Assembly: GCA_015200345.1 (NCBI GenBank)
Contig: CP054187.1
Span: 1,906,470-1,970,469 of the forward strand
Length of the DNA stretch: 64,000 bases
Source: Planctomycetia bacterium
GTDB taxonomy: Bacteria > Planctomycetota > Phycisphaerae > UBA1845 > UTPLA1
Direction: 5' to 3'
Shown: in pieces, positions 20,771 through 42,524 of the stretch
Layout of the letters: every line of letters starts with the position of its first letter
How positions within the stretch are numbered: position 1 is the stretch's first letter
The notes under the pieces: model-generated
Database searches by the model: none
Told to the model about the DNA's origin: nothing
Seen by the model: only the letters and a program-made list of their open reading frames with translations
Made by a program: the position numbers and the translations under genes

Positions 20771-22012
20771 TCACACCAACGCGCCCGGCCGCGTGCCAGT
20801 TTCCACGGGCAGTCCCGCAATCGACGCATGCCGCGCCGAACTCACCGCGGGCGATTCCGCGCCCAGCCACGGCGCGGGCGACACGACCGGTAGACCCGGC
20901 CACGTCGCCGACAGCCGCTCGGCTTCATCCTCCGCCACGCCCGGCGAAAGCGAACCGATCACGACGCCATCGACCCCGCTCCCATCGAATGCATCGGTCG
21001 AAACGACCTCCGCGTTTCGCCAGATGCCGGAATCTCCGCCGCCATCATAGACGCGTTCGAGCCAAAGTCCAGTTTTTTTCAGCAGATCAAGCAGTTGTTC
21101 GCAGCCTTTGCCGCGGCCCCACACCGCCACGCGCCGCACGGCGCACTTATCGGCCCACGACCGAATCGCCGCGCAAGCTCGATCCAGGCCCATCAGGCGC
21201 TCAAATTGTAATTCAGACATCGGTCGCGATTTAACGCCACGCGACAGAATCGCCCGCGCCTCCGCGCGGCCCGCCTCGAACCCCGCCATCGCGCCTTCCT
21301 TCCGCGCGACCCGCTCGTATCGCTCGAACGTCGACTCGATCAGGTCCGCTCGCAGCGATGCCGGCGCATGCCGCGCCCACATGCGCACGTTGTTCCGCAC
21401 CAGCAACCGCAGCATCCGATTGTTGTCGCGATTGCGCGTCACGCGCCCGTGCCAGACGAGCAACTCCCCGCGCGGCTCCACGCGCCAGCCGTTCCTCCAC
21501 AACTTGCACGCCAGATCATACTCCTCGGCGTAATACTCGTAGTCCGTCGGATACCCGCCGACCGCGAGAAACGCCTCGCGCCGCACGGCCCCGCCGCAAT
21601 TAAAAAAGATGCCCGGAACCCCGCCCGCATCGTGACGATGCGGCGGATCCGTTAATCGAACCCGACACGCCATCGCCGCCAGCGACGCGTCGCACGCGAA
21701 CAGTCCTCCCAGCGCGTCGATGACGCCCGGTGCAGGGTGGCTGTCGTCGTCCAGCATCAGCAGCACGCGCCCCTCCGCCGCCGCTGCGCCGAGGTTTCGC
21801 GCCGCGCAGCCGATGTTGCGCGACAGGTGAATCCAGCGCACGTCCGGATGATCGGCCGCCAGGGCGGAAGTCTCGTCCGTCGAGCCGTTGTCGAGGACGA
21901 TCACTTCAAACGCTCGATCGGGCAGTTCGCGCAGCCGAGCCAGCGTCGCGCGCAACACCGCTGCGCGGTTATGTGTCGGTATAATGACACTACATTCACA
22001 CGCCGGCCGCAT
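20771..22012 (-). CDS. GT2 family glycosyltransferase with extra Rossmann-like C-terminal domain
   Basis: The 413-residue protein begins SVIIPTHNRAAVLRATL, a GT-A fold opener. LLMLDDDSHPAP carries the metal-binding DxD, and YEYYAEEYDLACKLW the acceptor-side acidic motif (EED). The last third contains a nucleotide-binding-like turn (VAVWGRGKGCEQLLDLL) and a domain not typical of GT2, which may bind a nucleotide or sugar. It is inverting in family. It overlaps the end of the upstream bifunctional sugar enzyme by 17 bases, so both are translated from one mRNA. Role in LPS-core or polysaccharide synthesis is inferred from neighbours. Confidence 0.85.
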   Translation of the reverse strand: MRPACECSVIIPTHNRAAVLRATLARLRELPDRAFEVIVLDNGSTDETSALAADHPDVRWIHLSRNIGCAARNLGAAAAEGRVLLMLDDDSHPAPGVIDALGGLFACDASLAAMACRVRLTDPPHRHDAGGVPGIFFNCGGAVRREAFLAVGGYPTDYEYYAEEYDLACKLWRNGWRVEPRGELLVWHGRVTRNRDNNRMLRLLVRNNVRMWARHAPASLRADLIESTFERYERVARKEGAMAGFEAGRAEARAILSRGVKSRPMSELQFERLMGLDRACAAIRSWADKCAVRRVAVWGRGKGCEQLLDLLKKTGLWLERVYDGGGDSGIWRNAEVVSTDAFDGSGVDGVVIGSLSPGVAEDEAERLSATWPGLPVVSPAPWLGAESPAVSSARHASIAGLPVETGTRPGALV

Positions 22013-23705
22013 GTGGCGCCTTTCGCACGGGAGCTGACCGAACGCCCCGGCCGCTTTCCAGCAACCGCGTCCCGACGCGCTCGCCCGAATCGACGCTCGC
22101 CAGTTCCGTCCGGCCGGCGAGCCACCTCGCCAATTCTTCCGCCGTCACCGGTACGATCCCCAGCCGACCGATCTGCACCGCCGCCACCGCGCTGTACAGA
22201 TACGACGCCTGCATCAGCGTCGCGCCAGCCGCCATCGCCAGCGTCGCCGCGGCCGTCGCGCTCTCGCCGCACCCCAGTCGATCCAACGACCACTCCGACA
22301 ACGCCGGCAGATACTCACTCAAGAGCCGGTCGTGCCAGTTGGGTGACGCCCGGTCGTGCGAGCGGCGATCAAACGTCACCACGCCGCGCTTCGCGACGCT
22401 CACCAGCATCCGCGCCGCGCCCGTTGCCTGCATTACCTCATACGCGACCGCCGACAGACCACCGCTCGAACTCCCCGCTGCCTCACGAAGCCGCCGCTCG
22501 GAGACGCAAATCAAATCCGGCGATGACGCAACGTGTATCGTTCCCTGGCCGCCCGCCGACACCGTGCACCACCGGCCCGCTTCATGCAGCGATGCCGCCG
22601 CCGCTTCGACCATACCGGGCATCACAAACCCGTAACCACAGTCGTGCACGATGAACGCATCGACCCGAGCAGCCAACTCGCGCACCAAACTTGTCACCGC
22701 GCGTTCACTGATCGAATCAAGCGGGCGCGCCCCCGCGCGATCCACCCGGAACAGCTTCTGATCATCCGCGACGAAGCGCGTGCGGACCACCGCATCCTCG
22801 CGATAGCTCAATGCCTCAACGCGCACCCCGCCCGACTCCAGCGCCTGACGCAATCGCCGCGACGAGGCATCCCGCCCCAACGCCGTCACCAGCGTCGTCG
22901 GCGCGCCCAGCGCCGCCGCCGCAAGCGCCACCGCACCGGCCTCGCCGACGTACTCGCGTTCCCCCAGCTCCAGCAACGACATCATCGGCGCTTCGCCCGC
23001 GGCTGCCGACACGTCGCACGCCACGTAGCGCTCCAGCGTCGTCTCACCGATCACCAGCAACGACCGCCCGCGCATGCGACCAAGCAGTTCCGCCAGAGTC
23101 GACCGATCGATCCCATGCCGCCGGCACACCACGCCCAGCCGATCCGCAGCGAATTCTCCCACACGCGCGAGCGACTCCGCCAGACGCGTCGAGCTGAACA
23201 CGACCTGACCGCTGGAGAACACCACCCGCCCGCCGTGCGACTCGACCGTCTGGCGCTCCGCGAGAAAGCGCGGATCCTGGCTGGCCGCGTACTCCTGGCC
23301 CTTCACGTAAATGTCGGGCCGGACCTGTCTCAATATCTCAACAGCTGTCTCGTTTTGATCAATCACGACGTAGTCGACGAATGCCAGCGCCGCGAGGTTC
23401 TCCGCGCGCAGCTCTTCGGGGATGTACGGCCGCTGATCGCCTTTGCTGATCTGCGCATCGCCGGTAATCGATACGACCAGCACATCGCCGAGCGAACGCG
23501 CGAATTGCAGATAGCGAATGTGCCCGGGGTGGACGATGTCGAAGCAACCGTGACATTGCACCACGACCGGCGCGCGAGCCGATCCATCACCCGAACGCGC
23601 GGACAGGGGGTTGTCACGCAGGCGCGCCAGGGCGGCAGCCAGCGCCGCCGGCGAGAGGATCTTTTCACGATAGGAACACTCGACGCCGGTTTCGCGCGGG
23701 ATCAT
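21996..23705 (-). CDS. Bifunctional nucleotidyltransferase / PfkB-type sugar kinase (HldE-like, reversed order)
   Basis: The 569-residue protein starts at ATG 23705 (MIPRETGVECSYREK). The N-terminal third (about 45-190) is a cytidylyltransferase-like domain with GCFDIVHPGHIRYLQFAR (HxGH motif) and VDYVVIDQNETAVEILRQVRPDIYVKG. The remainder is a PfkB/ribokinase-type domain with GRSLLVIGETTLERYV, GEAPMMSLLE and a C-terminal RLGCGESATAAATLA. HldE of the ADP-heptose pathway carries both domains, but kinase first; here the order is reversed. The usual GAGD catalytic motif of the kinase is GCGE (Asp to Glu). It probably supplies an activated sugar for the adjacent GT2. The upstream membrane-protein gene ends 14 bases before it. 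Confidence 0.85.
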   Translation of the reverse strand: MIPRETGVECSYREKILSPAALAAALARLRDNPLSARSGDGSARAPVVVQCHGCFDIVHPGHIRYLQFARSLGDVLVVSITGDAQISKGDQRPYIPEELRAENLAALAFVDYVVIDQNETAVEILRQVRPDIYVKGQEYAASQDPRFLAERQTVESHGGRVVFSSGQVVFSSTRLAESLARVGEFAADRLGVVCRRHGIDRSTLAELLGRMRGRSLLVIGETTLERYVACDVSAAAGEAPMMSLLELGEREYVGEAGAVALAAAALGAPTTLVTALGRDASSRRLRQALESGGVRVEALSYREDAVVRTRFVADDQKLFRVDRAGARPLDSISERAVTSLVRELAARVDAFIVHDCGYGFVMPGMVEAAAASLHEAGRWCTVSAGGQGTIHVASSPDLICVSERRLREAAGSSSGGLSAVAYEVMQATGAARMLVSVAKRGVVTFDRRSHDRASPNWHDRLLSEYLPALSEWSLDRLGCGESATAAATLAMAAGATLMQASYLYSAVAAVQIGRLGIVPVTAEELARWLAGRTELASVDSGERVGTRLLESGRGVRSAPVRKAPHAAGV

Positions 23706-23719
23706 TCGATCGCCCCCGA

Positions 23720-24469
23720 TTACTGCGGCTTGAAGATCGCCTTGGCCGAGGCGACCACGCCTCGCGCCACCAGACTCGCCAGCAGCAGCAGCGTCAACCA
23801 GCCCACGGTCAGCGCCAGGATCGGCCACGCCCGAGCGATCGACTCCGGCATCGTCGGATAGATGGTTCCCGCCAGAAACGCAATCACGCCCGCGCTCGCG
23901 ATCGCGCCCAGATGCCCGCGGACATTCCCCGGCAGCGGCGCCATCCGCACCGTCAGACAGACGAGCAGATACGTGAACAGCAGAATCTTCCACGGATCGA
24001 CCGCCGCCGAACGCACCGCGTTCAACGTCGCTTCCGACAGCGTGATCAAGTCGCGCAGCTGCGCCCAGATCGCCGTCAGCGTCCTCGGAACCTGCTGGGA
24101 TATTTTTTCCGCCGGAACACCCATCAGCACCGGAGCGCCCAGGCGAACGCCCAAGACGTAGATCAATCCGCCGAGTGCCGCCATCGGCAGCAACGCCACC
24201 AGCACCGGACCGATAATCGGCAACTTTGGCTGCGGCCCGGGGTCGAAAGAGGCCTCGCCTTTGTCGCCATCCTTCACCAAGGCCGTATCGTTCACCGTCG
24301 CGCCCGTGATGAGCAACGCCACGATTCGTGCCAGCATCGCCATCAGCGTGCCCGGCAGCAGCAGCATGTTCACGGTCTTGGGACGAATCATGCCCAGCCA
24401 GAGCGTGTTCACGCCCCAAGCCAGGAGGACAGCCACGGCAATCCAGAAACAGGCAGTCGCATAGATCAT
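23720..24469 (-). CDS. Hypothetical polytopic membrane protein
   Basis: The 249 residues have about six hydrophobic segments (CFWIAVAVLLAWGVNTLWLG, LPGTLMAMLARIVALLIT, GPVLVALLPMAALGGLIYVLG, ILLFTYLLVCLTVRMAPLPG, GAIASAGVIAFLAGTIYP, AWPILALTVGWLTLLLLASLV). A soluble loop lies after helix two (DTALVKDGDKGEASFD). No family is recognised. It is the first gene of the minus-strand unit that continues with the bifunctional sugar enzyme, GT2 and the small helical protein, so a part in envelope glycan export or synthesis is possible. Confidence 0.75.
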   Translation of the reverse strand: MIYATACFWIAVAVLLAWGVNTLWLGMIRPKTVNMLLLPGTLMAMLARIVALLITGATVNDTALVKDGDKGEASFDPGPQPKLPIIGPVLVALLPMAALGGLIYVLGVRLGAPVLMGVPAEKISQQVPRTLTAIWAQLRDLITLSEATLNAVRSAAVDPWKILLFTYLLVCLTVRMAPLPGNVRGHLGAIASAGVIAFLAGTIYPTMPESIARAWPILALTVGWLTLLLLASLVARGVVASAKAIFKPQ

Positions 24470-24594
24470 GGCTGATGTCGCGCAGAATTCGCCCGGCGCG
24501 GAATCCCCGCGCGAGCCGCACTAAACATCGGCATTCCCGCACGGCCAAATTGAAGCGCGCAGCATGCCGGCCCAGGCGCTCGCGCAATTCCCGC

Positions 24595-24623
24595 TTGTCG
24601 CCGCCGCCGCAATTTGACATAAT
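24595..24623 (+). promoter_or_regulatory. Promoter TTGTCG-N17-CATAAT
   Basis: A -35 TTGTCG (24595-24600) and -10 CATAAT (24618-24623) lie 17 bases apart, about 50 bases ahead of the FHA gene. Confidence 0.45.
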
Positions 24624-24671
24624 GCCGACTCGGACCGACGGCTCTTCTTGACGGGCACCCTCAAGGCCATC

Positions 24672-25634
24672 ATGGCGCAAACGATCTGCTGTCCCTGCGG
24701 AACCCCCATTGACTGTGACCACGTCGAACTCGTGATCACCGCCACCTGTCCGCGCTGCGACCGCGAGCTGCCTCTGGAACTGGACCATTCCTTCGGCGCG
24801 CGGCGGGCCATGCTGACCATCATGGAAGGCCCCCACTGGGTCGGCGAACAATTCATCATGCCCGTCGGGGCCGCCCTTTCCATCGGCCGAGCCTCCGGTA
24901 ACTGGCTTTGCCTCGATGCCGCCGACATCGCTGACACCCACTGTCGACTCACCCTCGCCGCCTCCGGGGCCGTCATCGTCGAAGACCTCAACAGCCCGGC
25001 CGGCACCTGGATCGGTCCGCAGCGCATCGTGCGCGGTCACCTCGCGCCGACCGGTTCCTTGCGCGTCGGGCCGTTCCGGTTTCGATTCGACATTCAAACG
25101 CCGGAGGGCCGCATCGTCGCGCCGGACGGGCGGGACCAGAGTGACAGTGAATTGTCACTCCCGACCATGGCCAGCGTGAAGCGGAAGAACTCGCCGGCGC
25201 AATGGGCCGCGCGAAACCGCTTCATCCTCGCACGCTGGATCATTCTGACGCTCGCCTCGATCGGCGGGGCCGATTTCACGCTGCACCTTCGCGCACGACC
25301 GCCGGCCCCCTGGAACTGGAACAAGGCCCTCATCGCCGGCGCGCTCGTCTGGCTCATCACCAGTTTCGCCGGACGGCACGTCACGCTGATTCACAATTAC
25401 CTGAAGTATGCCTCGCTCGGATTGACCGTCGCCCTCGCGTTGGTCGGGCTGTCCTTCGGTGCGGGCGCCTTCGCCACCGCGTCGCTTTGCGCGGCAGCAG
25501 GCCTGGTGGTGCTCATCATGCGCGAGCCGCAGCCCTGGCTGGCCTTCGGCGGTGCGCTCATCGGCGCATTCGGACTGATCGTTCTAACGCGCGATTTGAC
25601 GCAGTTGATCCGGATCATTTCGTCCGGCGGATAA
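24672..25634 (+). CDS. FHA-domain membrane protein with N-terminal zinc ribbon
   Basis: From ATG 24672 the protein has 320 residues. The first 40 contain CPCG and CPRC (zinc-ribbon-like). An FHA domain follows (about 60-130: ALSIGRASGNWLCLDAADI, HCRLTLAASGAVIVEDLNS, GTWIGPQRIV), which binds phosphothreonine peptides. The C-terminus has four or five transmembrane helices (about 185-205, 215-235, 245-315). Such proteins would sense Ser/Thr kinase signalling at the membrane, but no kinase gene is nearby. Function is otherwise unknown. Confidence 0.8.
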   Translation: MAQTICCPCGTPIDCDHVELVITATCPRCDRELPLELDHSFGARRAMLTIMEGPHWVGEQFIMPVGAALSIGRASGNWLCLDAADIADTHCRLTLAASGAVIVEDLNSPAGTWIGPQRIVRGHLAPTGSLRVGPFRFRFDIQTPEGRIVAPDGRDQSDSELSLPTMASVKRKNSPAQWAARNRFILARWIILTLASIGGADFTLHLRARPPAPWNWNKALIAGALVWLITSFAGRHVTLIHNYLKYASLGLTVALALVGLSFGAGAFATASLCAAAGLVVLIMREPQPWLAFGGALIGAFGLIVLTRDLTQLIRIISSGG

Positions 25635-31321: not shown

Positions 31322-34300
31322 TCATGCGTAGCTGTGCAGCCCGACGATGTAGAAGTTCACCACCCACCAGTTGAACTGCATCACGGCGAAGCCCACGACG
31401 CTTAGCACGGCGGTCCACAAGGCATGATGCTTGGTGACAAATCGCGCGTGGATCAGAATCGCATAGACCAGCCACGTGTTGAGCGCGAAGACTTCCTTCG
31501 GATCCCACCCCCAAGGCCGGCCCCAGGAGTAATCGGCCCAGACCGCGCCGAGCACCAGTCCGACGAAGAGCGAAATCGTCGACGTGTAGAGCAGCACGCG
31601 ATGCGATCGGTCGAACTCATCGAGGATGGACCGCGTGCGCTGTGTGAGACTGGGGTCTTCGGCCGGCGCATTCATCGCCACCGCGCCGCCGCCCGCGCCG
31701 GCCAGAACGACCTGCCTGCGGCTCAAGAGCATCGCCGCCGCGCCGACCGCCAGCATCGCGCCGCCCGCGGTGGCCGCGGCAAAGGCCGTGACAAACCCCG
31801 CGCTGGACGCATGGTCGAAATAGCCGATCTTCGCGAGGACGAGGCAGGCCATCGCGCCGATTTGCGCGCCGATGGTGCCCTGGGCCAGCGGCTGACGATG
31901 CCGAAGGGCACTGACAAAGAGATAACAATTCGCGACGCCGTACGCGAGCGTGATGACCGCGTAGCTGGAGATGATGAGCACCGTGTGGATGCGAAGCATG
32001 ACGTCGTCCAGAATCGGCATCATGGTCGTCAGGCGATTGTCCACTTTGTCCGGCAGAATCTCGGGCAGCGCCAGGGCGAAGAACCCCAGCAGCGCCGAAC
32101 TCAACAGGAACACCCGCTTGCGCAGGAACAATTCAAGCAACAAGCCCAGCGCGGTGCCCGCCAGCGTGCTCGACACGACCGCTTCGTACATGTTCGCCAC
32201 GGGGATGCGCCCGATGACGTACCACCGCAGTCCCAGGTCATACGCATGAATGCCGATCGCCGCCGTGAGCATCACCAGGCCGACGTTGCGCACCCAGCGG
32301 TAGCGCGTCGCCACCGCAAAGATTGAAACAAAAAACGTGAAGATATAGACCAGCCAGGCCCACCACATCAGGTCCATGCGGCGGTACTTCACCTCGGCCA
32401 GCCGTCGCGCCGATTCGGGATAGATCCCCGCCGGCGCGAGCGTCGGCATGAGCTGCTCCAGCCGGCCGATGTGCTCGTTGATCTGCGACGCATCGCGCGC
32501 GAGCCATGCTCGCTCCAGCGCCTGCATCACCGCCAGCACGTCGTGCGCCTGTTTCTCATTCAAGCCGGTGTCCTGCCGGCTGCGCGGATCGGCCAGCGAC
32601 GCCGGAGAGGACCACGGCGTATCGTGCGTGCCGGTCGGGTGTGGGACAACGGTGAACGTCCAGCCGAGGCTCTCGAAGAGATTGACCGCCGAGAGCATGC
32701 GATCCATCGCCTTTTTCTTGATTGTCTCGCCGGCCAACTCGCGCACCCGCGCCGAGACCATCGGCGAGCGCACGAATTCCAGGCTCACCATGCCGCGCCG
32801 GAACAAGTCCATCCGCGCTTCGTCGGAGATCGGCACCGGATACGCCGTCAGGTCGGCCAGCAGGACCTTGTCCTTCACATACAGGATCGGCGCGGCGCGA
32901 TAGGCCGACGCATTGAACATCAACTCCATCGCCGCGACGACCGGGTCCAGCCCGTAGAGCGGCTTGCTGCCGTGAATCGTCTTCATCGCGTCACGCGCCC
33001 ACGAGTCCACCGTGGCGTAGCGCCAACTGTGCTGCAAAACGATCGCGCCGAGGCGCTTCACGTCGATCTGGGATTGAATCGCCGCCAGGCGCTCCGCCGC
33101 GCGCTGCGCCGTGGCTTCATCGGCGGGCGCTTGCGCATGCCCGTGCGCGTCGAACCCCGCCATGCCGGAGTGTGCCTTCATCATGGCATCAACCGCCGCG
33201 TCCGGCCTCCCCGCGGACTGCGACGCCGCAGGCGCCGCCGTCGATTGGGCTTGCACGGCCGCCGGTCGCGCGATCGCGCCCGCCATTCCCACCAGCGCCG
33301 CCAGAATTAATCCCAGGGCGCTCCCGACCGGCTCGCGCGGGCCCGTCCGAACGCCGCGCCCCGGTGCGGGGTCGCGCGGCGCCGGATCGTCTGCCGACGT
33401 CGCCGCCGCGGCCAGCCGACGCCGTCGCACCAGCGCCGGTTTCACAGTCCACGCGTACATCATGCCCAACGTTATCAGCAAACAACCAAACGCCATCGTC
33501 ATGACACCCTCACGATTGCCCACTCCCAGCACCGTCCACGACTCGTGATCCCCGGCCGCCTGCGACTGAAACAGCGTCCATCCGCCGATCCGCGCCGTGT
33601 TGTTCAACCACGCCTTGGCCGCCACGACCCGGCGTTCCGTCGGATCCTCGTATCGGAAATAACTCGCCCATCCGCTGGGCTGCTGCCGCCCAGGATAGAA
33701 ATCTGTCTGCAATCGCTCGAGCGTCACCCGGCCCGGCAGCGCCCGCTCGTAGCGACCGTAGATCAACTGCACCGGCCGGCCGCCGGGGATCGAATCCACC
33801 ACCGTCGGCTCATGGCGATCCATCAGCGTCGTGTTGTTGTACAAGCTGAACGGCACCCATTGCCGATGCGTCCACGATCCGTCGCGCGCCGCCAGCTTCA
33901 CGCGAATCAACGACTCCGTCCGCCGCACGTCGCCCAGCGACCGCCGCTGACGCACCGGCACCACCTGCGGCACCTGAACAATCCGCGGCTTCTCGATGCA
34001 TTCCAGCAGCGTCAGCGCCAAGTCGCCCGCCCGGAACGGCTCGCCGCTCTTGAGCTGTGACACCGTCCGCTTGCCGCCCCGCGCCGTATGCACGACGACC
34101 GGCGCCAGCGACTCGCTCGCCGCGATCATGAAATGATCCACCGAGGCGTCGGTGTAGAACAGCGCGAGGTTGTCGTCCACGAGATTCGCCGTATCCGACA
34201 TCTTCTTGCCCGCGCGATCGCGATCCTGATTCAACTGCGGGAAGCGATGCAGCACCGACCGCTGAAACTCCTGCTTCGGCGATTTCACCCACACCAGCGC

Positions 34301-35656
34301 GATCGGCGTCCGCGCGTTGTTGAAGCCTGCCGTCATCAAGGGCCAGCTCGGCCGAAGTTCCTCCACCGTCAGGCTATAGTCCGTGCCTTCCACGTCGATC
34401 TTCATGCCCGGCGTGACCGCGTAGCTCCGGCGAACGTCGCGATCCTTGACCCACACTTCCAGCACGTGCTCGCCCGGCACCGGCTTGGTGTACATGTCCG
34501 GCAGCGCGGTCTGACCCGTCAGCCATGCGAACTCAAACCGTTCGCCCTGGTTCAACTCCACCATCGACCGCGCCGGCACGCTCGCCGCCAGCCAGCTGTC
34601 GGCCTTGTCCGGCCCGCGCGTCACCTGAACGTGCGCCAGCGGCATCGTCTGATCGCCCCCGGGGATCGCACGATCTTCCAGGCGCGCGTACGGCAGATAC
34701 CCGTCGATTTCCACCGTGAACGGCCAATCGGCCGACACCGCACGGTTCGAGTCATCCAACGTCAGCGGCATCCGCCACGACTCGACCAGCGGGATCGGCG
34801 TCATGCGATCGGGGCGCACGACGTTGCCCGCTGTATCGGTGATGGGTGGTTCACCCGCCGGCTCGACGAATCGCTCGTTGTAGTACGGCAGGCCGTTCAG
34901 CGCGAAGACCTCGGTGTGCCCGTCGCGCGTCACCGACAGCATCGGCGTCGTGTCGTCGTAAAACGTCTCCGTGGTGCGACCCGGTGACAGCAGCAGCAGC
35001 AGCCGGTCGCTCAATTTCGCGAACCGCGCATCCACGTCGCCGCCCTGCCGCAGCTCGATCTCCTGCGGCGGCTGGTCTCCGATCTGCGCAACGAGCTTCA
35101 CCCGCGCCGCCGGCGTCATGCCCGAATGCTCCACGTCGGTGACTTCCAGCGCATGCCGCCCGCCCAGCATGGGGATGTTCGTCTCGAAACGCTTGCCCTT
35201 CACCGCCACGAACGAGCCGATCACCGCGCCTTGCGGATCGGTCTTCAGCCGATCGGAAGACACCAGTCGAATGCGCGGGGCATCAAGCCAGACATCGCCT
35301 TCGATCTTCTGCCCGAAATACACCACGCCCCCGCCGCACAACATCAACAGGCCGGTGTGAACGGTCAGCACGCCCAGATTGCGCACGTTGAACGCGATCC
35401 GACGGATCGTCGTGACCGTCAGACAGACGCAAAACAAGACGATCAACAGCAAGAAGACCCAGTGATTGAAAAAGGCGAATTCCGTCAACTCAAAGAATTG
35501 ACGAAACGTGGGAACGGCCGACCCGAGCGCCGAGTAGATGAGGATCAACGCAATCAGCACGATACCCAGCTTGATGCTGTCGAACGGGTCGATCATGCGG
35601 GACAGGAGCGGTCGCGTCGGCGTGGTGCGTGGTCGGGCGTTCACGTGCATTTCCAT
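31322..35656 (-). CDS. Fused cytochrome c biogenesis protein (ResB/CcsB plus CcsA)
   Basis: This 1444-residue fusion is a system II heme exporter and cytochrome c synthase. The N-terminal part has ResB-like transmembrane helices (IKLGIVLIALILIYSALGS, WVFLLLIVLFCVCLTVTT) and a large periplasmic region (about 100-750) with ResB domain. A hydrophobic segment and a low-complexity region (about 770-860) follow. The C-terminal third is CcsA, with multiple helices and the Trp-rich heme-handling WWD-type motif WGRPWGWDPKEVF, which contains the conserved WD. A His in TWLVYAILIHARFVT fits a heme ligand. Fused CcsBA forms exist in other bacteria; the size here is large because of the periplasmic domain. 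No cytochrome gene is adjacent. Confidence 0.88.
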   Translation of the reverse strand: MEMHVNARPRTTPTRPLLSRMIDPFDSIKLGIVLIALILIYSALGSAVPTFRQFFELTEFAFFNHWVFLLLIVLFCVCLTVTTIRRIAFNVRNLGVLTVHTGLLMLCGGGVVYFGQKIEGDVWLDAPRIRLVSSDRLKTDPQGAVIGSFVAVKGKRFETNIPMLGGRHALEVTDVEHSGMTPAARVKLVAQIGDQPPQEIELRQGGDVDARFAKLSDRLLLLLSPGRTTETFYDDTTPMLSVTRDGHTEVFALNGLPYYNERFVEPAGEPPITDTAGNVVRPDRMTPIPLVESWRMPLTLDDSNRAVSADWPFTVEIDGYLPYARLEDRAIPGGDQTMPLAHVQVTRGPDKADSWLAASVPARSMVELNQGERFEFAWLTGQTALPDMYTKPVPGEHVLEVWVKDRDVRRSYAVTPGMKIDVEGTDYSLTVEELRPSWPLMTAGFNNARTPIALVWVKSPKQEFQRSVLHRFPQLNQDRDRAGKKMSDTANLVDDNLALFYTDASVDHFMIAASESLAPVVVHTARGGKRTVSQLKSGEPFRAGDLALTLLECIEKPRIVQVPQVVPVRQRRSLGDVRRTESLIRVKLAARDGSWTHRQWVPFSLYNNTTLMDRHEPTVVDSIPGGRPVQLIYGRYERALPGRVTLERLQTDFYPGRQQPSGWASYFRYEDPTERRVVAAKAWLNNTARIGGWTLFQSQAAGDHESWTVLGVGNREGVMTMAFGCLLITLGMMYAWTVKPALVRRRRLAAAATSADDPAPRDPAPGRGVRTGPREPVGSALGLILAALVGMAGAIARPAAVQAQSTAAPAASQSAGRPDAAVDAMMKAHSGMAGFDAHGHAQAPADEATAQRAAERLAAIQSQIDVKRLGAIVLQHSWRYATVDSWARDAMKTIHGSKPLYGLDPVVAAMELMFNASAYRAAPILYVKDKVLLADLTAYPVPISDEARMDLFRRGMVSLEFVRSPMVSARVRELAGETIKKKAMDRMLSAVNLFESLGWTFTVVPHPTGTHDTPWSSPASLADPRSRQDTGLNEKQAHDVLAVMQALERAWLARDASQINEHIGRLEQLMPTLAPAGIYPESARRLAEVKYRRMDLMWWAWLVYIFTFFVSIFAVATRYRWVRNVGLVMLTAAIGIHAYDLGLRWYVIGRIPVANMYEAVVSSTLAGTALGLLLELFLRKRVFLLSSALLGFFALALPEILPDKVDNRLTTMMPILDDVMLRIHTVLIISSYAVITLAYGVANCYLFVSALRHRQPLAQGTIGAQIGAMACLVLAKIGYFDHASSAGFVTAFAAATAGGAMLAVGAAAMLLSRRQVVLAGAGGGAVAMNAPAEDPSLTQRTRSILDEFDRSHRVLLYTSTISLFVGLVLGAVWADYSWGRPWGWDPKEVFALNTWLVYAILIHARFVTKHHALWTAVLSVVGFAVMQFNWWVVNFYIVGLHSYA

Positions 35657-36315: not shown

Positions 36316-37143
36316 ATGTCCGACTTGATGATCTTTTTCCAGCCGCGGTATGCCGCCGCACTCGCCGCGCTCGGCCTGGCCACGCTCGATGACTTCCTCG
36401 CCGAACAGGCCGGCCGATTGGTCAGCGCGCACGGCCTGACGCATACCCGTCGCATCGAATTCGCGCACGCCGGTCAGATCCTCGCCGGCTATCTGAAGAT
36501 TTACGACTACACGCGCCGGCCGCTGCGGCATCGGTTCATTCGCGACAAGGCTCGCCGCGAGGCGGAGAACGTTTCGGTCCTCCGCCATCGCTGCGGCCTT
36601 TCGATGCCGACCGTTGTCTGCATCGGCGCGCGGCGACGGCTGGGCGCGCTCGTGCGAAGCTTCATCCTGACGCTGGAGCTGCCGGCGTCGCGCCCGCTCG
36701 CTGAAGCGTGGGACCACTCGCTGGTTGATCGAACCGAGCTGCTCGCGCGTTCGCCGGCTTTCGTCGCGCGGATGCACGCCGCCGGATTCGTTCACATCGA
36801 TCTGCGCTGGCGCAACATCCTTGTGTGCTGCGAAGGCGATCGTCCTTTCGAATTCGTGCCGATTGATTGCGTGCGCGGTGGATGGCGGCGCGCACGCCTG
36901 GCGCGGGAACACGGTCGACTTCGTGATCTGTCCAGCCTCTACAAGGACGCGCGGCCACGACTGACTCGCACCCAGTTGCTCCGCTGGTACATCGCCTACG
37001 TCGCCGCGCTGAACGACGTCGATCCGCGTCGAAGGCGGCAACCGGCGAACGAGAGCGCTCGGATCCGCCTTGACGGGTTGCATCGGCAAGCCATTTGTGT
37101 CATTCTGCGCGATCGCGATTCCAAGGACGGATCGCCCGCATGA
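36316..37143 (+). CDS. LPS kinase-like protein (WaaP/Kdo-kinase family)
   Basis: The start ATG 36316 gives 275 residues and aligns by eye with the start of the downstream paralogue (MSIHFEIEPPYAEALRAAGL vs MSDLMIFFQPRYAAALAALG). The kinase-like core has GFVHIDLRWRNIL (HxDxxxxN catalytic loop, His-Ile-Asp) and VPIDCVRGG (metal-binding Asp). This family phosphorylates heptose or Kdo in LPS. Substrate is not known here. Its stop overlaps the next ATG (ATGA), so translation is coupled. Confidence 0.7.
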   Translation: MSDLMIFFQPRYAAALAALGLATLDDFLAEQAGRLVSAHGLTHTRRIEFAHAGQILAGYLKIYDYTRRPLRHRFIRDKARREAENVSVLRHRCGLSMPTVVCIGARRRLGALVRSFILTLELPASRPLAEAWDHSLVDRTELLARSPAFVARMHAAGFVHIDLRWRNILVCCEGDRPFEFVPIDCVRGGWRRARLAREHGRLRDLSSLYKDARPRLTRTQLLRWYIAYVAALNDVDPRRRRQPANESARIRLDGLHRQAICVILRDRDSKDGSPA

Positions 37144-38981
37144 GCATTCACTTCGAAATCGAGCCGCCGTATGCCGAAGCCCTGCGCGCCGCGGGACTCG
37201 ACTCCTTCGACGCGCTGATGGCCGCGCGCGGCGGTCCGGCCGTCAGCGCTCACGCCGAACGGGAGACGATTCCGCTGGATATTCAGCTCGACGGCACGAT
37301 GCAGCGCTGCTTCCTCAAGCGCGTCTTCCGCGTGCCGATCAAACAAGTCGTCGCCCCGCTGCTGCGCGGGCGCCGCGCGCGGTCGCAGCCCCTGCACGAG
37401 TGGAACATGCTCGGCGCGCTGCGCGCCGCCGGAATCGGCGCCATGCAGCGCATCGCCGTCGGGGAACAGCGCATCGCGGGCCAGCCCGTAGCGGCGTGCC
37501 TGCTTGTCGCCGCGGTGCCATCGGACAATACGTTCGAACATTGGATGCAAACAGGGGATGTGCGATCCGGCTCGGTCGGCGCACGGCAGCGCGCCCGCCT
37601 TCTGGGCGCCGTCGGAACGCTCATGGGGCGACTGTCGTCTAACGGGTTCATGTGGCCCGACTGTCAGGCGAAGCACCTCTTTGCGGCGCGGCAGCCGGAC
37701 GGCCCCGGGTGGTCCCTGTGGCTGATCGACGTGGAGCGAATGGAGCGCGATGCGAATCGCGCGCAATCCATCGAGCGTCGCCTGCAAGGAGCGAGGGCTC
37801 ACCTCGTTCGTCTGCGCCGATCGTGCCCGATGGCGCGGTTCACGTGGCGCGATTATTTGCACGTCGCGGCCGGGTTGCGCCGCGCGCTGTGGACCGACGG
37901 CGGTTGCCCGCGCCGCGGCCGGCCGGAGCCGGTTCACACAGAAAAAGACCGTTCGAAGGCTGCGCCGATCCTGTTCGACACGTTCGCTAAGATGGAGTTG
38001 CGACCCGCCGTGCCCGACGATCAGCGTCCATTGAACGGTGTCCGGAGCGTTGACGGGTACAAGATGCTCGCCGAATACGAGAACCTGTTTCGGGCGCATC
38101 AGCTTGATCATTTTGATCGTCTTTTCAATCTCGCTTCGGATGCCGATCTTCACAAACCGGGCCTGGCGGCCCATCGCAGCCGCAGCCGATTCACGCTGAC
38201 CGACGCCACTGGCCGGGAGCACACGTTTTTTCTGAAGCGCTACCTGCATCCCCCGACGGCCGATCAACTTCGCCGCATCGTCAGCGGCTCGCCGGGGGAG
38301 AGCATGGCCGCGCGCGAGTACCGTTGCATCAAGCGCTTGAATCAGATTGGAATCTCCACGCTGCAATGCGTCGCCGTTGGGCAACGGATGGTCGGACTCA
38401 CCGAGCGGCAAAGCTTCCTGATCACGGTGGGCTTGAACGACGTTTCACTGGAGCGCTACGCGGCGGACATCGCGCGCGGTCATGCGCCGCTCCCGTCGCC
38501 CGGATTGCGGCGGCAGATCATCTGCCAGCTCGCGCTGGTGGCGCGCACGCTTCATGCCGCGCGCTATTTTCATCGCGACCTTTATTTGTCTCATGTTTTT
38601 CTGCATCGCAACGCCAACGGATCGGTCGCCCTGCGGTTGATCGACCTCGCACGGATGCTGGTCAAGCCGCGCCAAACCCTCCGCTGGACAATCAAAGATT
38701 TGGCCGCCTTGGATTACAGCGCCCCGCGACCGCTGGTCACACGAGCCGATCGGGTTCGATTTCTTCTCGTCTACCTGAATCCGTTGCGCGATCGTTGCTT
38801 ACTTTCGAGCCTGGGCGTCGAGCGCGGAAGCTGGGCAAGCGCCGTGCGCCGAGATCGGACCGCCGCCGACCGCGCGGCCGGGAAGCAGGCCCTGCGTTAC
38901 CATATTCCGCTGGTTGCCGCGCGCGTTCGCAAGATGGCCGTTCACGACGCGCGCCGCCGGGAAACGGGTGCCACGGCTTGA
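37140..38981 (+). CDS. Tandem LPS kinase-like protein with two kinase domains
   Basis: The 613-residue protein holds two kinase-like modules. Module one (about 1-270) has WPDCQAKHLF (Asp retained, Asn replaced by His) and WLIDVERM. Module two (about 310-613) has FHRDLYLSHVFLH and LRLIDLARML. Both keep the two Asp that WaaP-type kinases need, so neither is obviously dead. The N-terminus resembles the preceding one-domain paralogue. Possibly one domain acts on inner-core heptose and the other elsewhere, which is inference. Confidence 0.75.
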   Translation: MSIHFEIEPPYAEALRAAGLDSFDALMAARGGPAVSAHAERETIPLDIQLDGTMQRCFLKRVFRVPIKQVVAPLLRGRRARSQPLHEWNMLGALRAAGIGAMQRIAVGEQRIAGQPVAACLLVAAVPSDNTFEHWMQTGDVRSGSVGARQRARLLGAVGTLMGRLSSNGFMWPDCQAKHLFAARQPDGPGWSLWLIDVERMERDANRAQSIERRLQGARAHLVRLRRSCPMARFTWRDYLHVAAGLRRALWTDGGCPRRGRPEPVHTEKDRSKAAPILFDTFAKMELRPAVPDDQRPLNGVRSVDGYKMLAEYENLFRAHQLDHFDRLFNLASDADLHKPGLAAHRSRSRFTLTDATGREHTFFLKRYLHPPTADQLRRIVSGSPGESMAAREYRCIKRLNQIGISTLQCVAVGQRMVGLTERQSFLITVGLNDVSLERYAADIARGHAPLPSPGLRRQIICQLALVARTLHAARYFHRDLYLSHVFLHRNANGSVALRLIDLARMLVKPRQTLRWTIKDLAALDYSAPRPLVTRADRVRFLLVYLNPLRDRCLLSSLGVERGSWASAVRRDRTAADRAAGKQALRYHIPLVAARVRKMAVHDARRRETGATA

Positions 38982-39019: not shown

Positions 39020-40201
39020 GTGAAGCTCGGCATCATCATTGAGCGATTGGAAGCCTGGCGCGGCGGGGCGGAAACCTCCACGCTGGAACTGGCGCGCCTG
39101 TTGCGCGAGAAGGGGCACGCGATTCACGTCATCACCTCCACGATCAGCCAGTCGACGCCCGGTTTGACGATCCACCAGGTGCCGGCGCCGAGCGTCTTCG
39201 GCCCGCTTCGCACCGCGACGTTTGTTCGCCACGCCGCTCGGCAGGCGGAACAGATCGGGTTCGATGCGGTCCTGGCCATGTCGCCCTGTCCCGCCGCCGA
39301 CGTGTATCAGCCCCGCGGGGGGCTGGTGCGCGAGACGCTGGCGCGCAACATCGCCACGCGCAGCTCCGCTCCGCGCCGGTTCGCCAAGCGCGCCATGCTC
39401 GCGCTGAACATCAAGCAGCGCAGCCTGCTGGAGCTGGAACGCAAGACCCTGCGCGAAGGCGGACCCATCGTCGTCGCGGTGTCGAACTACGTCGCGCGAC
39501 AATGCCGGGAACTCTACGGCCTGACGCCGCCGCGCGTCCGCATCGTCTTCAACGGCGTCACCATCGAGCGACCGCCGGCGCCGCAATGGGCCGCCGACCG
39601 CGCCGCAATCCGGCAGCAGTATCACGTTCCGGACGGCGCGCTGCTGTTGCTCTTCGTCGCGCACAATTTTCGCCTGAAGGGGCTGGAACCCTTGATCGAA
39701 ACGGCCTCGCGCCTGGTCACCGGCGGGTTCACCGATTTTCGCGTGCTCGTGGTCGGGCGCGACAACCCGGTGCGATTTCAGAGGCGGATTCACACGCAAC
39801 ACCTGGATCGCTTCATCACGTTCACCGGTCCGACCCAGCGCTCCGCCGCGTTCTTCTGCGCGGCCGATGCACTCGTGCATCCAACCTACTATGACCCGTG
39901 CAGCCGCGTGGTACTGGAAGCCCTCGCGCTGGGCGTGCCGGTGCTGACGACGCGATTCAACGGCGCGAGCGAGATCATGACCGACGGCGTGGAAGGGTTC
40001 GTCATCGCCACGCCGGACGAAGTGGGCCTGTGGGCGCGACGGATCACGGAACTGGCCGACCCGGCGCTGCGGGAAAAGATGGTTGCAGCGGCGCTGCGAC
40101 TGCGCGAGCGCGTCAGCATGAAGCGGCACGCGGAGGAGTTGAACGCGATCCTGTTGGAGGCAGCCGACCGGCGGGGCACAAAACGTCGCGCCCCGGCGTG
40201 A
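39020..40201 (+). CDS. GT4 family glycosyltransferase (WaaG-like)
   Basis: The GTG start at 39020 is preceded by GGCAGGGG. The protein has 393 residues and a GT-B fold. The N-terminal half opens MKLGIIIERLEAWRGGAET. The C-terminal nucleotide-sugar half has LLFVAHNFRLKGLEPLIE and HPTYYDPCSRVVLEALALGVPVLTT, the EX7E-type motif of GT4. It closely resembles LPS core glucosyltransferase WaaG and the neighbouring kinases support an LPS-core role. It is 38 bases after the tandem kinase gene. Confidence 0.85.
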   Translation: MKLGIIIERLEAWRGGAETSTLELARLLREKGHAIHVITSTISQSTPGLTIHQVPAPSVFGPLRTATFVRHAARQAEQIGFDAVLAMSPCPAADVYQPRGGLVRETLARNIATRSSAPRRFAKRAMLALNIKQRSLLELERKTLREGGPIVVAVSNYVARQCRELYGLTPPRVRIVFNGVTIERPPAPQWAADRAAIRQQYHVPDGALLLLFVAHNFRLKGLEPLIETASRLVTGGFTDFRVLVVGRDNPVRFQRRIHTQHLDRFITFTGPTQRSAAFFCAADALVHPTYYDPCSRVVLEALALGVPVLTTRFNGASEIMTDGVEGFVIATPDEVGLWARRITELADPALREKMVAAALRLRERVSMKRHAEELNAILLEAADRRGTKRRAPA

Positions 40202-40917: not shown

Positions 40918-41016
40918 CCGAGGCAAGACTTTAAATGCCAAACTCCAAGTCAAGCGACTCCGGTGCTTTGGATTCGGGCCGCACCGACAAATGGAGACGA
41001 TTCGAGTCAACCGGAG

Positions 41017-41859
41017 ATGTATCGCGTGCTTAACAAGGTTGTCGGCTGGCTTGGACGTCTGTTTGGGGTGATGCCCCCCTCTGACCAAGCTCGCGGCGGC
41101 GCGGGCGACGCGCTGCCGGTCGCACGCACGACGGTCGGCCTGTGTTTCGATTTCGCGCCGGGCATCGGTTTTGAAAGCGCTCGCGAGGCGGACATCGGAC
41201 TGGACCTCATCCTCGGCAAGCTGAACGAGATGCGGCTCACCGCGACGTTTTTCTGCCCGGCCAAACTCTGCGAGACGATGCCCGGGCGGCTGGAACAGAT
41301 CGCCTCGCGCGGCCACGAGCTGGGCTGCCTCGGATACGCCGACGAGGAACCTCGCAAACTCACCGAAGACGCCCTGGCGCAGATGATCATTGCCTGCCGC
41401 AGCGCGTTTGAGCGACGAGGCTGGAAGCCCGCCGGGTATCGCTATCCGCACTCCGACTGGGACGCGCGGCTCAACGCCGTGCTGCCGCGGCAGCAGTTCA
41501 TCTACCACGCCCACCACGATCACGCGAAACACCCCTATCGCGTCGCCCGCGGTCCGGACCTGGTGCGCGTGCCGATCTGCACCGACGATCGCGGCCTGCG
41601 CCGCCGGCAGGAGACCGTGAACCTGACGCTGTCCAAGCATTTGCGCTATCTGCGAAAAGCGATCGCGCGCGGGACGTATGTCGCCGTGGCGTTCCACCCG
41701 GCGATTCTCGCGGAAGACCCCGATCACATGAGCCACTGGGAGGAATGGGTCCGGGCTGCCGTGCGCAGCCGGGCGGACGTCGGCCCGCTGGTGCGCGCGC
41801 TGCCGGAGGCCCTTCGCCCGGTATCGAGCGAACCCGCGGCCAAAAGGGAAAAGACCTGA
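41017..41859 (+). CDS. Polysaccharide deacetylase (NodB)-like protein, degenerate metal site
   Basis: ATG 41017 gives 280 residues; GTG 41026 would be better placed after GGAG (nine bases) and is equally possible. NodB-like landmarks are TVGLCFDFAPGIGFE, RLTATFFCPAKLC, RGHELGCLGYADEE, AGYRYPHSDWD and VAFHPAILAED. In the second motif the HxxxH metal ligands of carbohydrate esterase 4 are not present after HELG. The first motif has Asp but not the usual Asp-Asp pair. It could be a divergent deacetylase or a non-enzymatic relative. It overlaps the start of plsY by one base. Confidence 0.65.
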   Translation: MYRVLNKVVGWLGRLFGVMPPSDQARGGAGDALPVARTTVGLCFDFAPGIGFESAREADIGLDLILGKLNEMRLTATFFCPAKLCETMPGRLEQIASRGHELGCLGYADEEPRKLTEDALAQMIIACRSAFERRGWKPAGYRYPHSDWDARLNAVLPRQQFIYHAHHDHAKHPYRVARGPDLVRVPICTDDRGLRRRQETVNLTLSKHLRYLRKAIARGTYVAVAFHPAILAEDPDHMSHWEEWVRAAVRSRADVGPLVRALPEALRPVSSEPAAKREKT

Positions 41860-42524
41860 TGACGAACGCCACAAACATGGCACTGCTTTTCCTCGGCGCG
41901 CACCTCGCCGGGACGATCCCGTTCGGCCTCCTCGTCGCGCGGCTCAAGGGCGTCGACATTCGATCGGTCGGCAGCGGCAACGTCGGCGCGACCAACGTCG
42001 GCCGCGTGCTGGGTCGCAAATGGGGCGTGCTCGTCCTGCTGCTCGACGCCGGCAAGGGCGCGGCCGCCACGATCGCGGCACGCCTCGTGATGGACCACGC
42101 CGGCATGGTCGGCGTTACCCAGCGCGATCTCGTCTGGCTCGGCGCGGGGTTCGCCTGCGTCCTGGGGAACATCGCGCCGTTCTATCTCGGCTTTCGCGGC
42201 GGAAAGGGCGTGGCGGCGTCGCTCGGCGCGATCATGGGAATCTACCCGTACATGACCCTGCCTGGTCTCGCCGTGTTGTTTGTGTTCGCCGTCACCGCGC
42301 TGGTCAGCCGCTACGTCTCCCTCGCCTCGATCGTGGCGGCCTGTTCCCTGCCGTTGATCTTCTCCGCTGCCTGCCTCCTGGCGGGTTGGCCGCTCGTTGA
42401 GCATTGGCCGCTTTTCTCGTTAGGTGTGCTGCTGGCCACCTTCATCACCATTCGTCATCGTGCCAATCTCGCTCGCATTCGCGCTGGGACCGAGAACCGA
42501 ATCGGCTCTCGCACGGACCGATAA
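41859..42524 (+). CDS. plsY: Glycerol-3-phosphate acyltransferase PlsY
   Basis: The membrane enzyme acylates glycerol-3-phosphate using acyl-phosphate, the first phospholipid step in most bacteria. The 221 residues show several transmembrane helices and family motifs SGNVGATNVGRVLG, GNIAPFYLGFRGGKGVAASLG and the C-terminal RHRANLARIRAGTE. It overlaps the preceding stop in TGATG, so translation is coupled. plsX and acpP are not in the window. Confidence 0.95.
   Translation: MTNATNMALLFLGAHLAGTIPFGLLVARLKGVDIRSVGSGNVGATNVGRVLGRKWGVLVLLLDAGKGAAATIAARLVMDHAGMVGVTQRDLVWLGAGFACVLGNIAPFYLGFRGGKGVAASLGAIMGIYPYMTLPGLAVLFVFAVTALVSRYVSLASIVAACSLPLIFSAACLLAGWPLVEHWPLFSLGVLLATFITIRHRANLARIRAGTENRIGSRTDR

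What the first reader, a model, noticed from the sequence alone, without database searches (positions are those of the whole stretch)
36316..38981. LPS-kinase-like paralogues, one with two kinase domains fused
The one-domain gene and the tandem-domain gene overlap (ATGA) and are followed by a WaaG-like GT4. The N-terminus of the one-domain protein matches the N-terminus of the tandem one. In module one the HxDxxxxN Asn is His. This may be a phosphorylation cassette for an unusual core.
Basis: partly seen in the sequence, partly recalled or inferred. Interest (0 to 1): 0.5.

Follow-up and report, generated by a model that had tools for sequence, protein, structure and literature searches.

The report
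Two-kinase protein for bacterial outer-membrane sugar
A planctomycete carries a conserved gene set that probably adds phosphates to the inner sugars of its outer-membrane lipopolysaccharide, including one protein made of two different kinase modules, the first of which has an unusual active-site loop.

Summary
Window 36316-37143 encodes one Kdo/WaaP-family kinase module (B). It overlaps by 4 bases a 613-residue gene (37140-38981) with two modules (C, D), followed by a WaaG-like GT4. All three modules are predicted kinase folds. The tandem protein is in 15 of 17 family genomes. The common order there is GT9, kinase A, B, C-D, GT4, like the Pseudomonas core cluster; in this genome A sits elsewhere, beside a GT9. 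WaaA and LpxC are present. LPS inner-core phosphorylation is the best reading; no substrate is shown. The real oddity is Trp-Pro-Asp instead of His-Arg-Asp in module C. No first module of this type has His (0 of 28), yet the catalytic Lys, Glu, Asp, Mg-His and DFG-Asp remain in all 16 of the window's type. C and D are old, separate lineages. Either C is a second active kinase with a rebuilt loop, or it is becoming a support module; in one other family (3 of 3 seen) it has lost the catalytic Lys.

The parts
36316..37143 (+). Kinase B: one-module Kdo/WaaP-family kinase, 275 aa; catalytic loop H160-I-D162-x4-N167 at 36793-36816 (Asn type)
   Evidence: PF06293 47 bits; AlphaFold pLDDT 91.5; best PDB 6dfl WaaP Z 20.6 over 230 residues, rmsd 3.6; family alignment A2
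37140..38981 (+). Tandem kinase C-D, 613 aa, overlapping kinase B by 4 bases
   Evidence: two PF06293 stretches, 148.3 bits; AlphaFold pLDDT 84.0, pTM 0.78; alignment A1 of 15
37140..37901 (+). Module C (residues 1-254 as aligned; the fold match runs to about residue 287): kinase module with W172-P-D174-x4-H179 at 37653-37676 instead of HRD; K60, E87, D197 kept
   Evidence: Bud32 4ww5 Z 16.6 aligned at 22-287, 212 residues, rmsd 4.2
38055..38981 (+). Module D (residues 306-613): WaaP-type kinase module with H478-R-D480-x4-H485 at 38571-38594; K366, E393, D502, D520 kept
   Evidence: 6dfl WaaP Z 20.8 at 306-601, 236 residues, rmsd 3.3; 31% identity to E. coli WaaP over 194 columns; NCBIfam RfaP 148.8 bits for the whole protein, below its 170 cut-off
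39020..40201 (+). WaaG-like GT4 glycosyltransferase, same strand, 38 bases after the tandem gene
   Evidence: conserved downstream neighbour (cluster c2, 14 loci)
40963..41859 (+). Polysaccharide deacetylase (PF01522), neighbour in part of the family
   Evidence: (cluster c9, 7 loci)
41859..42524 (+). PlsY glycerol-3-phosphate acyltransferase (PF02660), frequent neighbour, probably not part of the function
   Evidence: (cluster c3, 12 loci)

Best explanation
The locus is the phosphorylation part of an LPS inner-core gene set. Kinase A (elsewhere in this genome, beside a heptosyltransferase-type gene), kinase B and module D are ATP-dependent sugar kinases that phosphorylate different hydroxyls of the heptose/Kdo region on the cytoplasmic face. 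D acts like WaaP (heptose I). Module C, fused ahead of D, is most likely a second, working kinase whose catalytic loop has been rebuilt (Trp-Pro-Asp for His-Arg-Asp, often without the alphaF Asp that normally anchors it), so that one polypeptide places two phosphates on neighbouring positions. Shown: family membership, predicted folds, retained catalytic residues, conserved linkage, presence of WaaA, LpxC and GT9 genes, omega below 1 for both modules. Inferred: LPS as substrate, heptose as acceptor, activity of C, the two-phosphate outcome.
For: In 16 of 16 tandem proteins of the window's type (15 of family f1 plus one of f6) module C keeps the Lys, alphaC Glu, catalytic Asp, Mg-His and DFG Asp. 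Omega for C is below 1 (0.33 and 0.22 in two close pairs; D 0.09 and 0.05). C-type modules with Trp also occur as stand-alone frames of 234-272 aa with the full residue set (6 of 6), so the module can exist without D. D falls with E. coli WaaP (63-row group, SH-aLRT 95). Context GT9-A-B-[C-D]-GT4 in the family and GT9 beside A in this genome; the Pseudomonas core cluster has four kinase genes in a row (PA5006, wapQ, wapP, waaP) beside wapG, waaC and waaF (PMC8005017, table passage).
Against: C has lost the HRD His and Arg, and the alphaF Asp in 12 of 18 Trp-type tandem modules with a letter at that column (that loop is gappy, so this is soft). Omega of C is 3.6 and 4.5 times that of D in the two close pairs and higher than that of D in all five pairs computed. 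In family f14 the Lys is Arg and the Glu is Thr or Met (3 of 3), one f9 member has DFG Asp to Asn, and the f5 tandem (L055) is degraded in both modules. In this genome kinase A and GT9 are not in the cluster. No biochemical data exist here.
Confidence: 0.45

Rival explanations
1. Module C is a pseudokinase or support module: it binds and positions the acceptor, or stabilises D, while only D does chemistry in the tandem protein.
For: HRD is replaced in all 20 Trp-type tandem modules (WPD 17, WLD 2, WPE 1); alphaF Asp absent in 12 of 18; weaker constraint than D; catalytic residues lost in f14 and elsewhere. P. aeruginosa WaaP itself needs a bound partner, acyl-ACP, for stability (PMC6147952, passages).
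Against: All five chemistry residues stay invariant in 16 of 16 proteins of the window's type, which a pure scaffold would not need; stand-alone Trp-type modules with all five exist.
Confidence: 0.37
2. The enzymes phosphorylate a different glycan or lipid-linked sugar, not the LPS inner core.
For: No substrate is known; equivalog cut-offs for RfaP and for the Kdo kinase are not met; a GT9-cluster gene lies upstream in only 9 of 16 loci and not at this locus.
Against: D is closest to WaaP by sequence and fold; a WaaG-like GT4 follows in 14 of 16 loci; GT9 and kinase A are neighbours in this genome; WaaA and LpxC are in the genome.
Confidence: 0.13
3. The tandem protein is a recent internal duplication of one WaaP-like domain.
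For: C and D align over most of their length at 24% identity, E 2e-8.
Against: C and D lie in different groups on a tree built without three motif columns; holding 14 C and 14 D rows of family f1 together costs 144.7 log-likelihood units, p-AU 5e-5 (84 rows).
Confidence: 0.03

Closest known systems
WaaP/RfaP LPS heptose I kinase (E. coli, P. aeruginosa; PDB 6dfl)
   Same: Module D: fold (Z 20.8), 31% identity to E. coli WaaP over the core, HRDxxxxH loop with Mg-His, IDLxR as the DFG motif, alphaF Asp
   Different: Fused behind a second kinase module; below the NCBIfam RfaP cut-off; the acyl-ACP-binding tail was not compared
Pseudomonas core cluster waaF-waaC-wapG-waaP-wapP-wapQ-PA5006
   Same: Four kinase modules next to heptosyltransferase and a WaaG-type GT4
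   Different: There four separate genes; here three genes, one with two modules; one-to-one orthology was not tested
KdkA Kdo kinase / Bud32 / Rio (the KdoK-Rio-Bud32 cluster of Kannan et al. 2007, PMC1821047, passages)
   Same: Kinase B has HxDxxxxN and weak KdkA and Bud32 profile matches (28.4 and 26.5 bits)
   Different: Far below the equivalog cut-offs (142 and 125 bits)
GT9-WaaP fusions of planctomycete MAGs (L117, L107)
   Same: A D-type kinase fused to a partner of the same pathway
   Different: Partner is the heptosyltransferase itself, not a second kinase

Membership tests
Pfam PF06293 Kdo/WaaP family | score over the curated cut-off of 21.3 bits | tested here: met
   P0001 47 bits, P0002 148.3 bits in two stretches; separately 95.1, 58.2 and 47.2 bits for D, C, B in the genome scan
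Pfam PF06293 Kdo/WaaP family | protein-kinase-like fold | tested here: met
   Predicted models; WaaP Z 20.6 (B) and 20.8 (D); Bud32 Z 16.6 on C
RfaP/WaaP equivalog (NCBIfam NF011703) | score over the cut-off of 170 bits | tested here: not met
   148.8 bits for the tandem protein
WaaP-type catalytic site, module D | Lys, alphaC Glu, HRD, Mg-binding His in place of Asn, DFG Asp | tested here: met
   K366, E393, H478-R-D480, H485, D502; reference residues from PMC6147952
WaaP-type catalytic site, module C | HRD motif | tested here: not met
   W172-P-D174; 0 of 28 first modules of His type have His there
WaaP | binds acyl-ACP through its C-terminal subdomain | not tested
   -
WaaP | phosphorylates heptose I of LPS | not testable with these tools
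   needs an enzyme assay
KdkA Kdo kinase (NCBIfam NF002475), kinase B | score over the cut-off of 142 bits | tested here: not met
   28.4 bits
WaaG glucosyltransferase, GT4 39020-40201 | nearest solved relative is WaaG | tested here: met
   E 4.1e-19, top of 19 PDB sequences; 24% identity to E. coli WaaG. Sugar specificity not tested; among NCBIfam models the best matches were MshA and BshA, far under their cut-offs

The most novel reading that the evidence does not exclude
Phycisphaerae have a separate branch of WaaP-like sugar kinases in which the HRD motif of the catalytic loop became W-P-D (F/Y-P-D or F/Y-R-D in relatives; L/M-P-D apparently arose a second time), often with loss of the alphaF Asp anchor, while the chemistry residues stayed. 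Fused to a classical WaaP module, it makes one enzyme that phosphorylates the LPS inner core twice.
Probability: 0.35. Interest if true: 0.55.

Novelty: new variant of a known kind. Interest (0 to 1): 0.36.

Why it matters
Planctomycete LPS core chemistry is little known (my own knowledge; I ran only the paper searches named), and core phosphates are what divalent cations bridge in other outer membranes (PMC8005017 abstract). A compact, conserved four-module kinase set points to a phosphorylated inner core that can be tested directly. Module C also gives a natural series (F/YRD, F/YPD, WPD against HRD) for asking how far the HRD anchor of kinases can be replaced while the catalytic residues stay.

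Tried and rejected
Asn-to-His as a sign of a dead or unusual module: rejected, it is the WaaP norm. Recent internal duplication: rejected by the AU test. Chance ORFs or a fusion made by an assembly error: rejected, the frame is open and conserved in 15 of 17 family genomes. A pair with the genome's second tandem protein (L056:7891-9906): rejected, both its modules are Asn-type (HDDMHPGN, HRDLKAPN) and lie elsewhere on the tree.

Led nowhere: phmmer of P0001 against PDB gave one match at E 0.87. Seven paper searches (open-licence PMC only; ranked lists, in part capped) showed no title or abstract about a two-module PF06293 protein or a WPD loop; of the 10 papers naming PF06293 I read passages of one, PMC1821047. 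Passages of PMC3422733 on planctomycete outer membranes said nothing on heptose kinases. Orthology to WapP, WapQ and PA5006 was not tested: no Pseudomonas genome was fetched. The alphaF column is unreliable in Trp-type modules because that loop is gappy. The 143-row tree is the 'quick' type with some long branches; 5 short, degraded or stray rows and 1 unclassified row were left out, and 30 of 78 D singles are in it. In one search two Lys/Glu cells of B modules are gaps from split or cut rows.

Full report
What is there. Window 36316-37143 (+) encodes a 275-residue protein with one Kdo/WaaP (PF06293) module. Window 37140-38981 (+) encodes 613 residues with two. The genes overlap by four bases, ATGA. 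A GT4 gene follows at 39020. I call the modules B (one-domain), C and D (tandem, first and second). B and C align at 24% identity over 227 columns, E 8e-9, and the two family profiles match with 99.6% probability, so the match is not confined to the N-terminus.

Fold. AlphaFold models from alignments of window-type relatives are confident: B pLDDT 91.5, tandem pLDDT 84.0 and pTM 0.78, with segments 255-276 and 548-573 under 50. Structure alignment puts B on P. aeruginosa WaaP 6dfl (Z 20.6, 230 residues, rmsd 3.6), D on WaaP 6dfl (Z 20.8, 236 residues, rmsd 3.3) and C on Bud32 4ww5 (Z 16.6, 212 residues, rmsd 4.2).

Catalytic residues. In 15 aligned tandem proteins the invariant columns include K60, E87, W172, D174, H179, D197 in C and K366, E393, H478-R479-D480, H485, D502, D520 in D. 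The paper on the WaaP structure (PMC6147952, passages) names K51, E78, H161RD and D188 as the conserved kinase residues and says that H168 coordinates the second Mg in place of Asn171 of PKA. So His at the Asn place is the WaaP rule: it was found in 86 of 87 D-type modules and in E. coli WaaP. What is unusual in C is the loss of the HRD His and Arg. Over all two-module proteins collected, the first module of the His type never has His at that place (0 of 28): Trp 20 (WPD 17, WLD 2, WPE 1), Phe 5, Tyr 2, Met 1. The 16 of the window's type (15 of family f1, one of f6) all keep the five chemistry residues. Of the other 12, six keep them, one is cut off, and five have lost at least one: three of family f14 with Lys to Arg and Glu to Thr or Met, one f9 with DFG Asp to Asn, and L055 (f5), degraded in both modules. 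Six stand-alone Trp-type modules (one G048 gene, five of family f17) keep all five. The alphaF Asp, which in WaaP contacts the HRD His main chain, is present in 28 of 28 D modules of tandem proteins with a letter there, 78 of 78 D singles and 33 of 34 A/B-type singles, and in 8 of 8 F/Y/M-type C modules, but in only 6 of 18 Trp-type tandem modules with a letter there and 1 of 6 stand-alone ones (the region is gappy). Kannan et al. (PMC1821047, passages) describe H158, H164 and D220 as a hydrogen-bond network linking DFG with substrate regions; C seems to have dismantled part of it.

Ancestry. On a quick maximum-likelihood tree of 143 modules with three motif columns masked, the Trp-type modules are one group (25 rows, SH-aLRT 97), the F/Y tandem modules another (7 rows, 97), kinases A (17 rows, 99) and B (16 rows, 98) two more, and D lies in a group with E. 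coli WaaP (63 rows, 95). Forcing 14 C and 14 D modules of f1 proteins into one clade is rejected (delta lnL 144.7, p-AU 5e-5). The tandem gene thus joins two old kinase lineages; whether stand-alone C came before or after the fusion is open. Single L/M-P-D kinases (6 rows, 100) fall in the D group, so an x-P-D loop seems to have arisen twice.

Distribution and setting. Of 61 genomes searched with the whole tandem protein, 56 match; the C-D arrangement is in 15 of 17 genomes of the window's family (not found in G004, 75% complete, or G008, 95% complete; one copy, G016, is cut by a contig end) and in G021 of family f6. With the C profile, 18 of 114 genomes of the order score over 150 bits (the 16 above, stand-alone G048 and degraded G030); all other matches listed at E up to 1e-20 are under 100 bits. 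In the class sample 56 of 397 match at 1e-25 and in the phylum sample 8 of 392; among the 20 class regions that I fetched there are F/Y-type and f14 tandems, D-type proteins, L/M-P-D singles and one stand-alone Trp-type gene. The 80 named contigs kept from 337 matches are mostly planctomycete MAGs; two titles say Omnitrophota and one 'bacterium'. In the 16 loci with the window-type tandem, B lies directly upstream in 15 (not in G003), kinase A directly before B in 10, a gene of the GT9 cluster upstream of A in 9 (in L048 about 1.6 kb away), and the GT4 directly after the tandem in 14 (GT9 confirmed by Pfam on one member; L044 and L053 are cut by contig ends). The start and stop codons overlap by exactly 4 bases in 9 of 14 loci measured, with starts that I chose. 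In the window's genome and its genus mate kinase A sits elsewhere; in this genome it is beside a GT9 gene (G000:C1:2573957 and 2574808). The genome also encodes WaaA, LpxC, SIS_2 proteins of the GmhA kind and an HldE-like cytidylyltransferase just below its cut-off (178.1 against 181.5 bits).

Selection. Between genus mates, omega is 0.33 for C and 0.09 for D; in a second close pair 0.22 and 0.05; in three more distant pairs, where dS is over 1, C is again above D (0.54/0.32, 0.32/0.27, 0.38/0.21). C is constrained, but less than D. No formal test was run.

Reading. GT9, WaaG-like GT4 and four kinase modules resemble the Pseudomonas core cluster, where waaP, wapP, wapQ and PA5006 stand beside wapG, waaC and waaF (PMC8005017, table passage). 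I therefore take the block as LPS inner-core phosphorylation. D is the WaaP-like part. C is either a second kinase with a rebuilt catalytic loop, which I slightly prefer because all chemistry residues are kept throughout the window's type, or a support module on its way to a pseudokinase, as in family f14. Substrate and activity are not shown.

Novelty. PF06293 proteins and core kinase clusters are known. The two-module fusion with a WPD module did not turn up in seven searches of open-licence papers; this does not cover subscription papers or database annotations.

Noticed in passing
L117:4885-6840, L107:3874-6054 (planctomycete MAGs): D-type WaaP kinase fused behind a GT9 heptosyltransferase in one ORF (both Pfam domains over cut-off). 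13 further proteins of 617-702 aa carry D at the C-terminus; the one of these that was scanned, L130, had no GT9 match.
   Followed up: partly
L056:7891-9906 (own genome C1:3445525-3446997) and L204, L250, L254, L255, L256: A second type of two-module PF06293-like protein with Asn-type loops in both modules, seen in several families.
   Followed up: partly
L200-L205 (families f15, f21, f23, f25): Single WaaP-like kinases with L-P-D or M-P-D instead of HRD, grouping with D/WaaP on the quick tree: an apparent second origin of an x-P-D loop.
   Followed up: partly
window 21999-25097 (-): 1033-residue frame with a cytidylyltransferase domain before a PfkB kinase domain and about 500 residues ahead of them without a Pfam match at E 0.001; it matched the HldE domain II model with 121.8 bits, under its cut-off.
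   Followed up: no
L055:7334-9016 (G030): Tandem homologue whose two modules have both lost catalytic residues (WPE and no DFG Asp in C; no Lys, HRD or Mg ligand in D).
   Followed up: no
window 31325-35656 (-): 1444-residue frame upstream with a cytochrome c assembly (PF01578) domain at its C-terminus.
   Followed up: no
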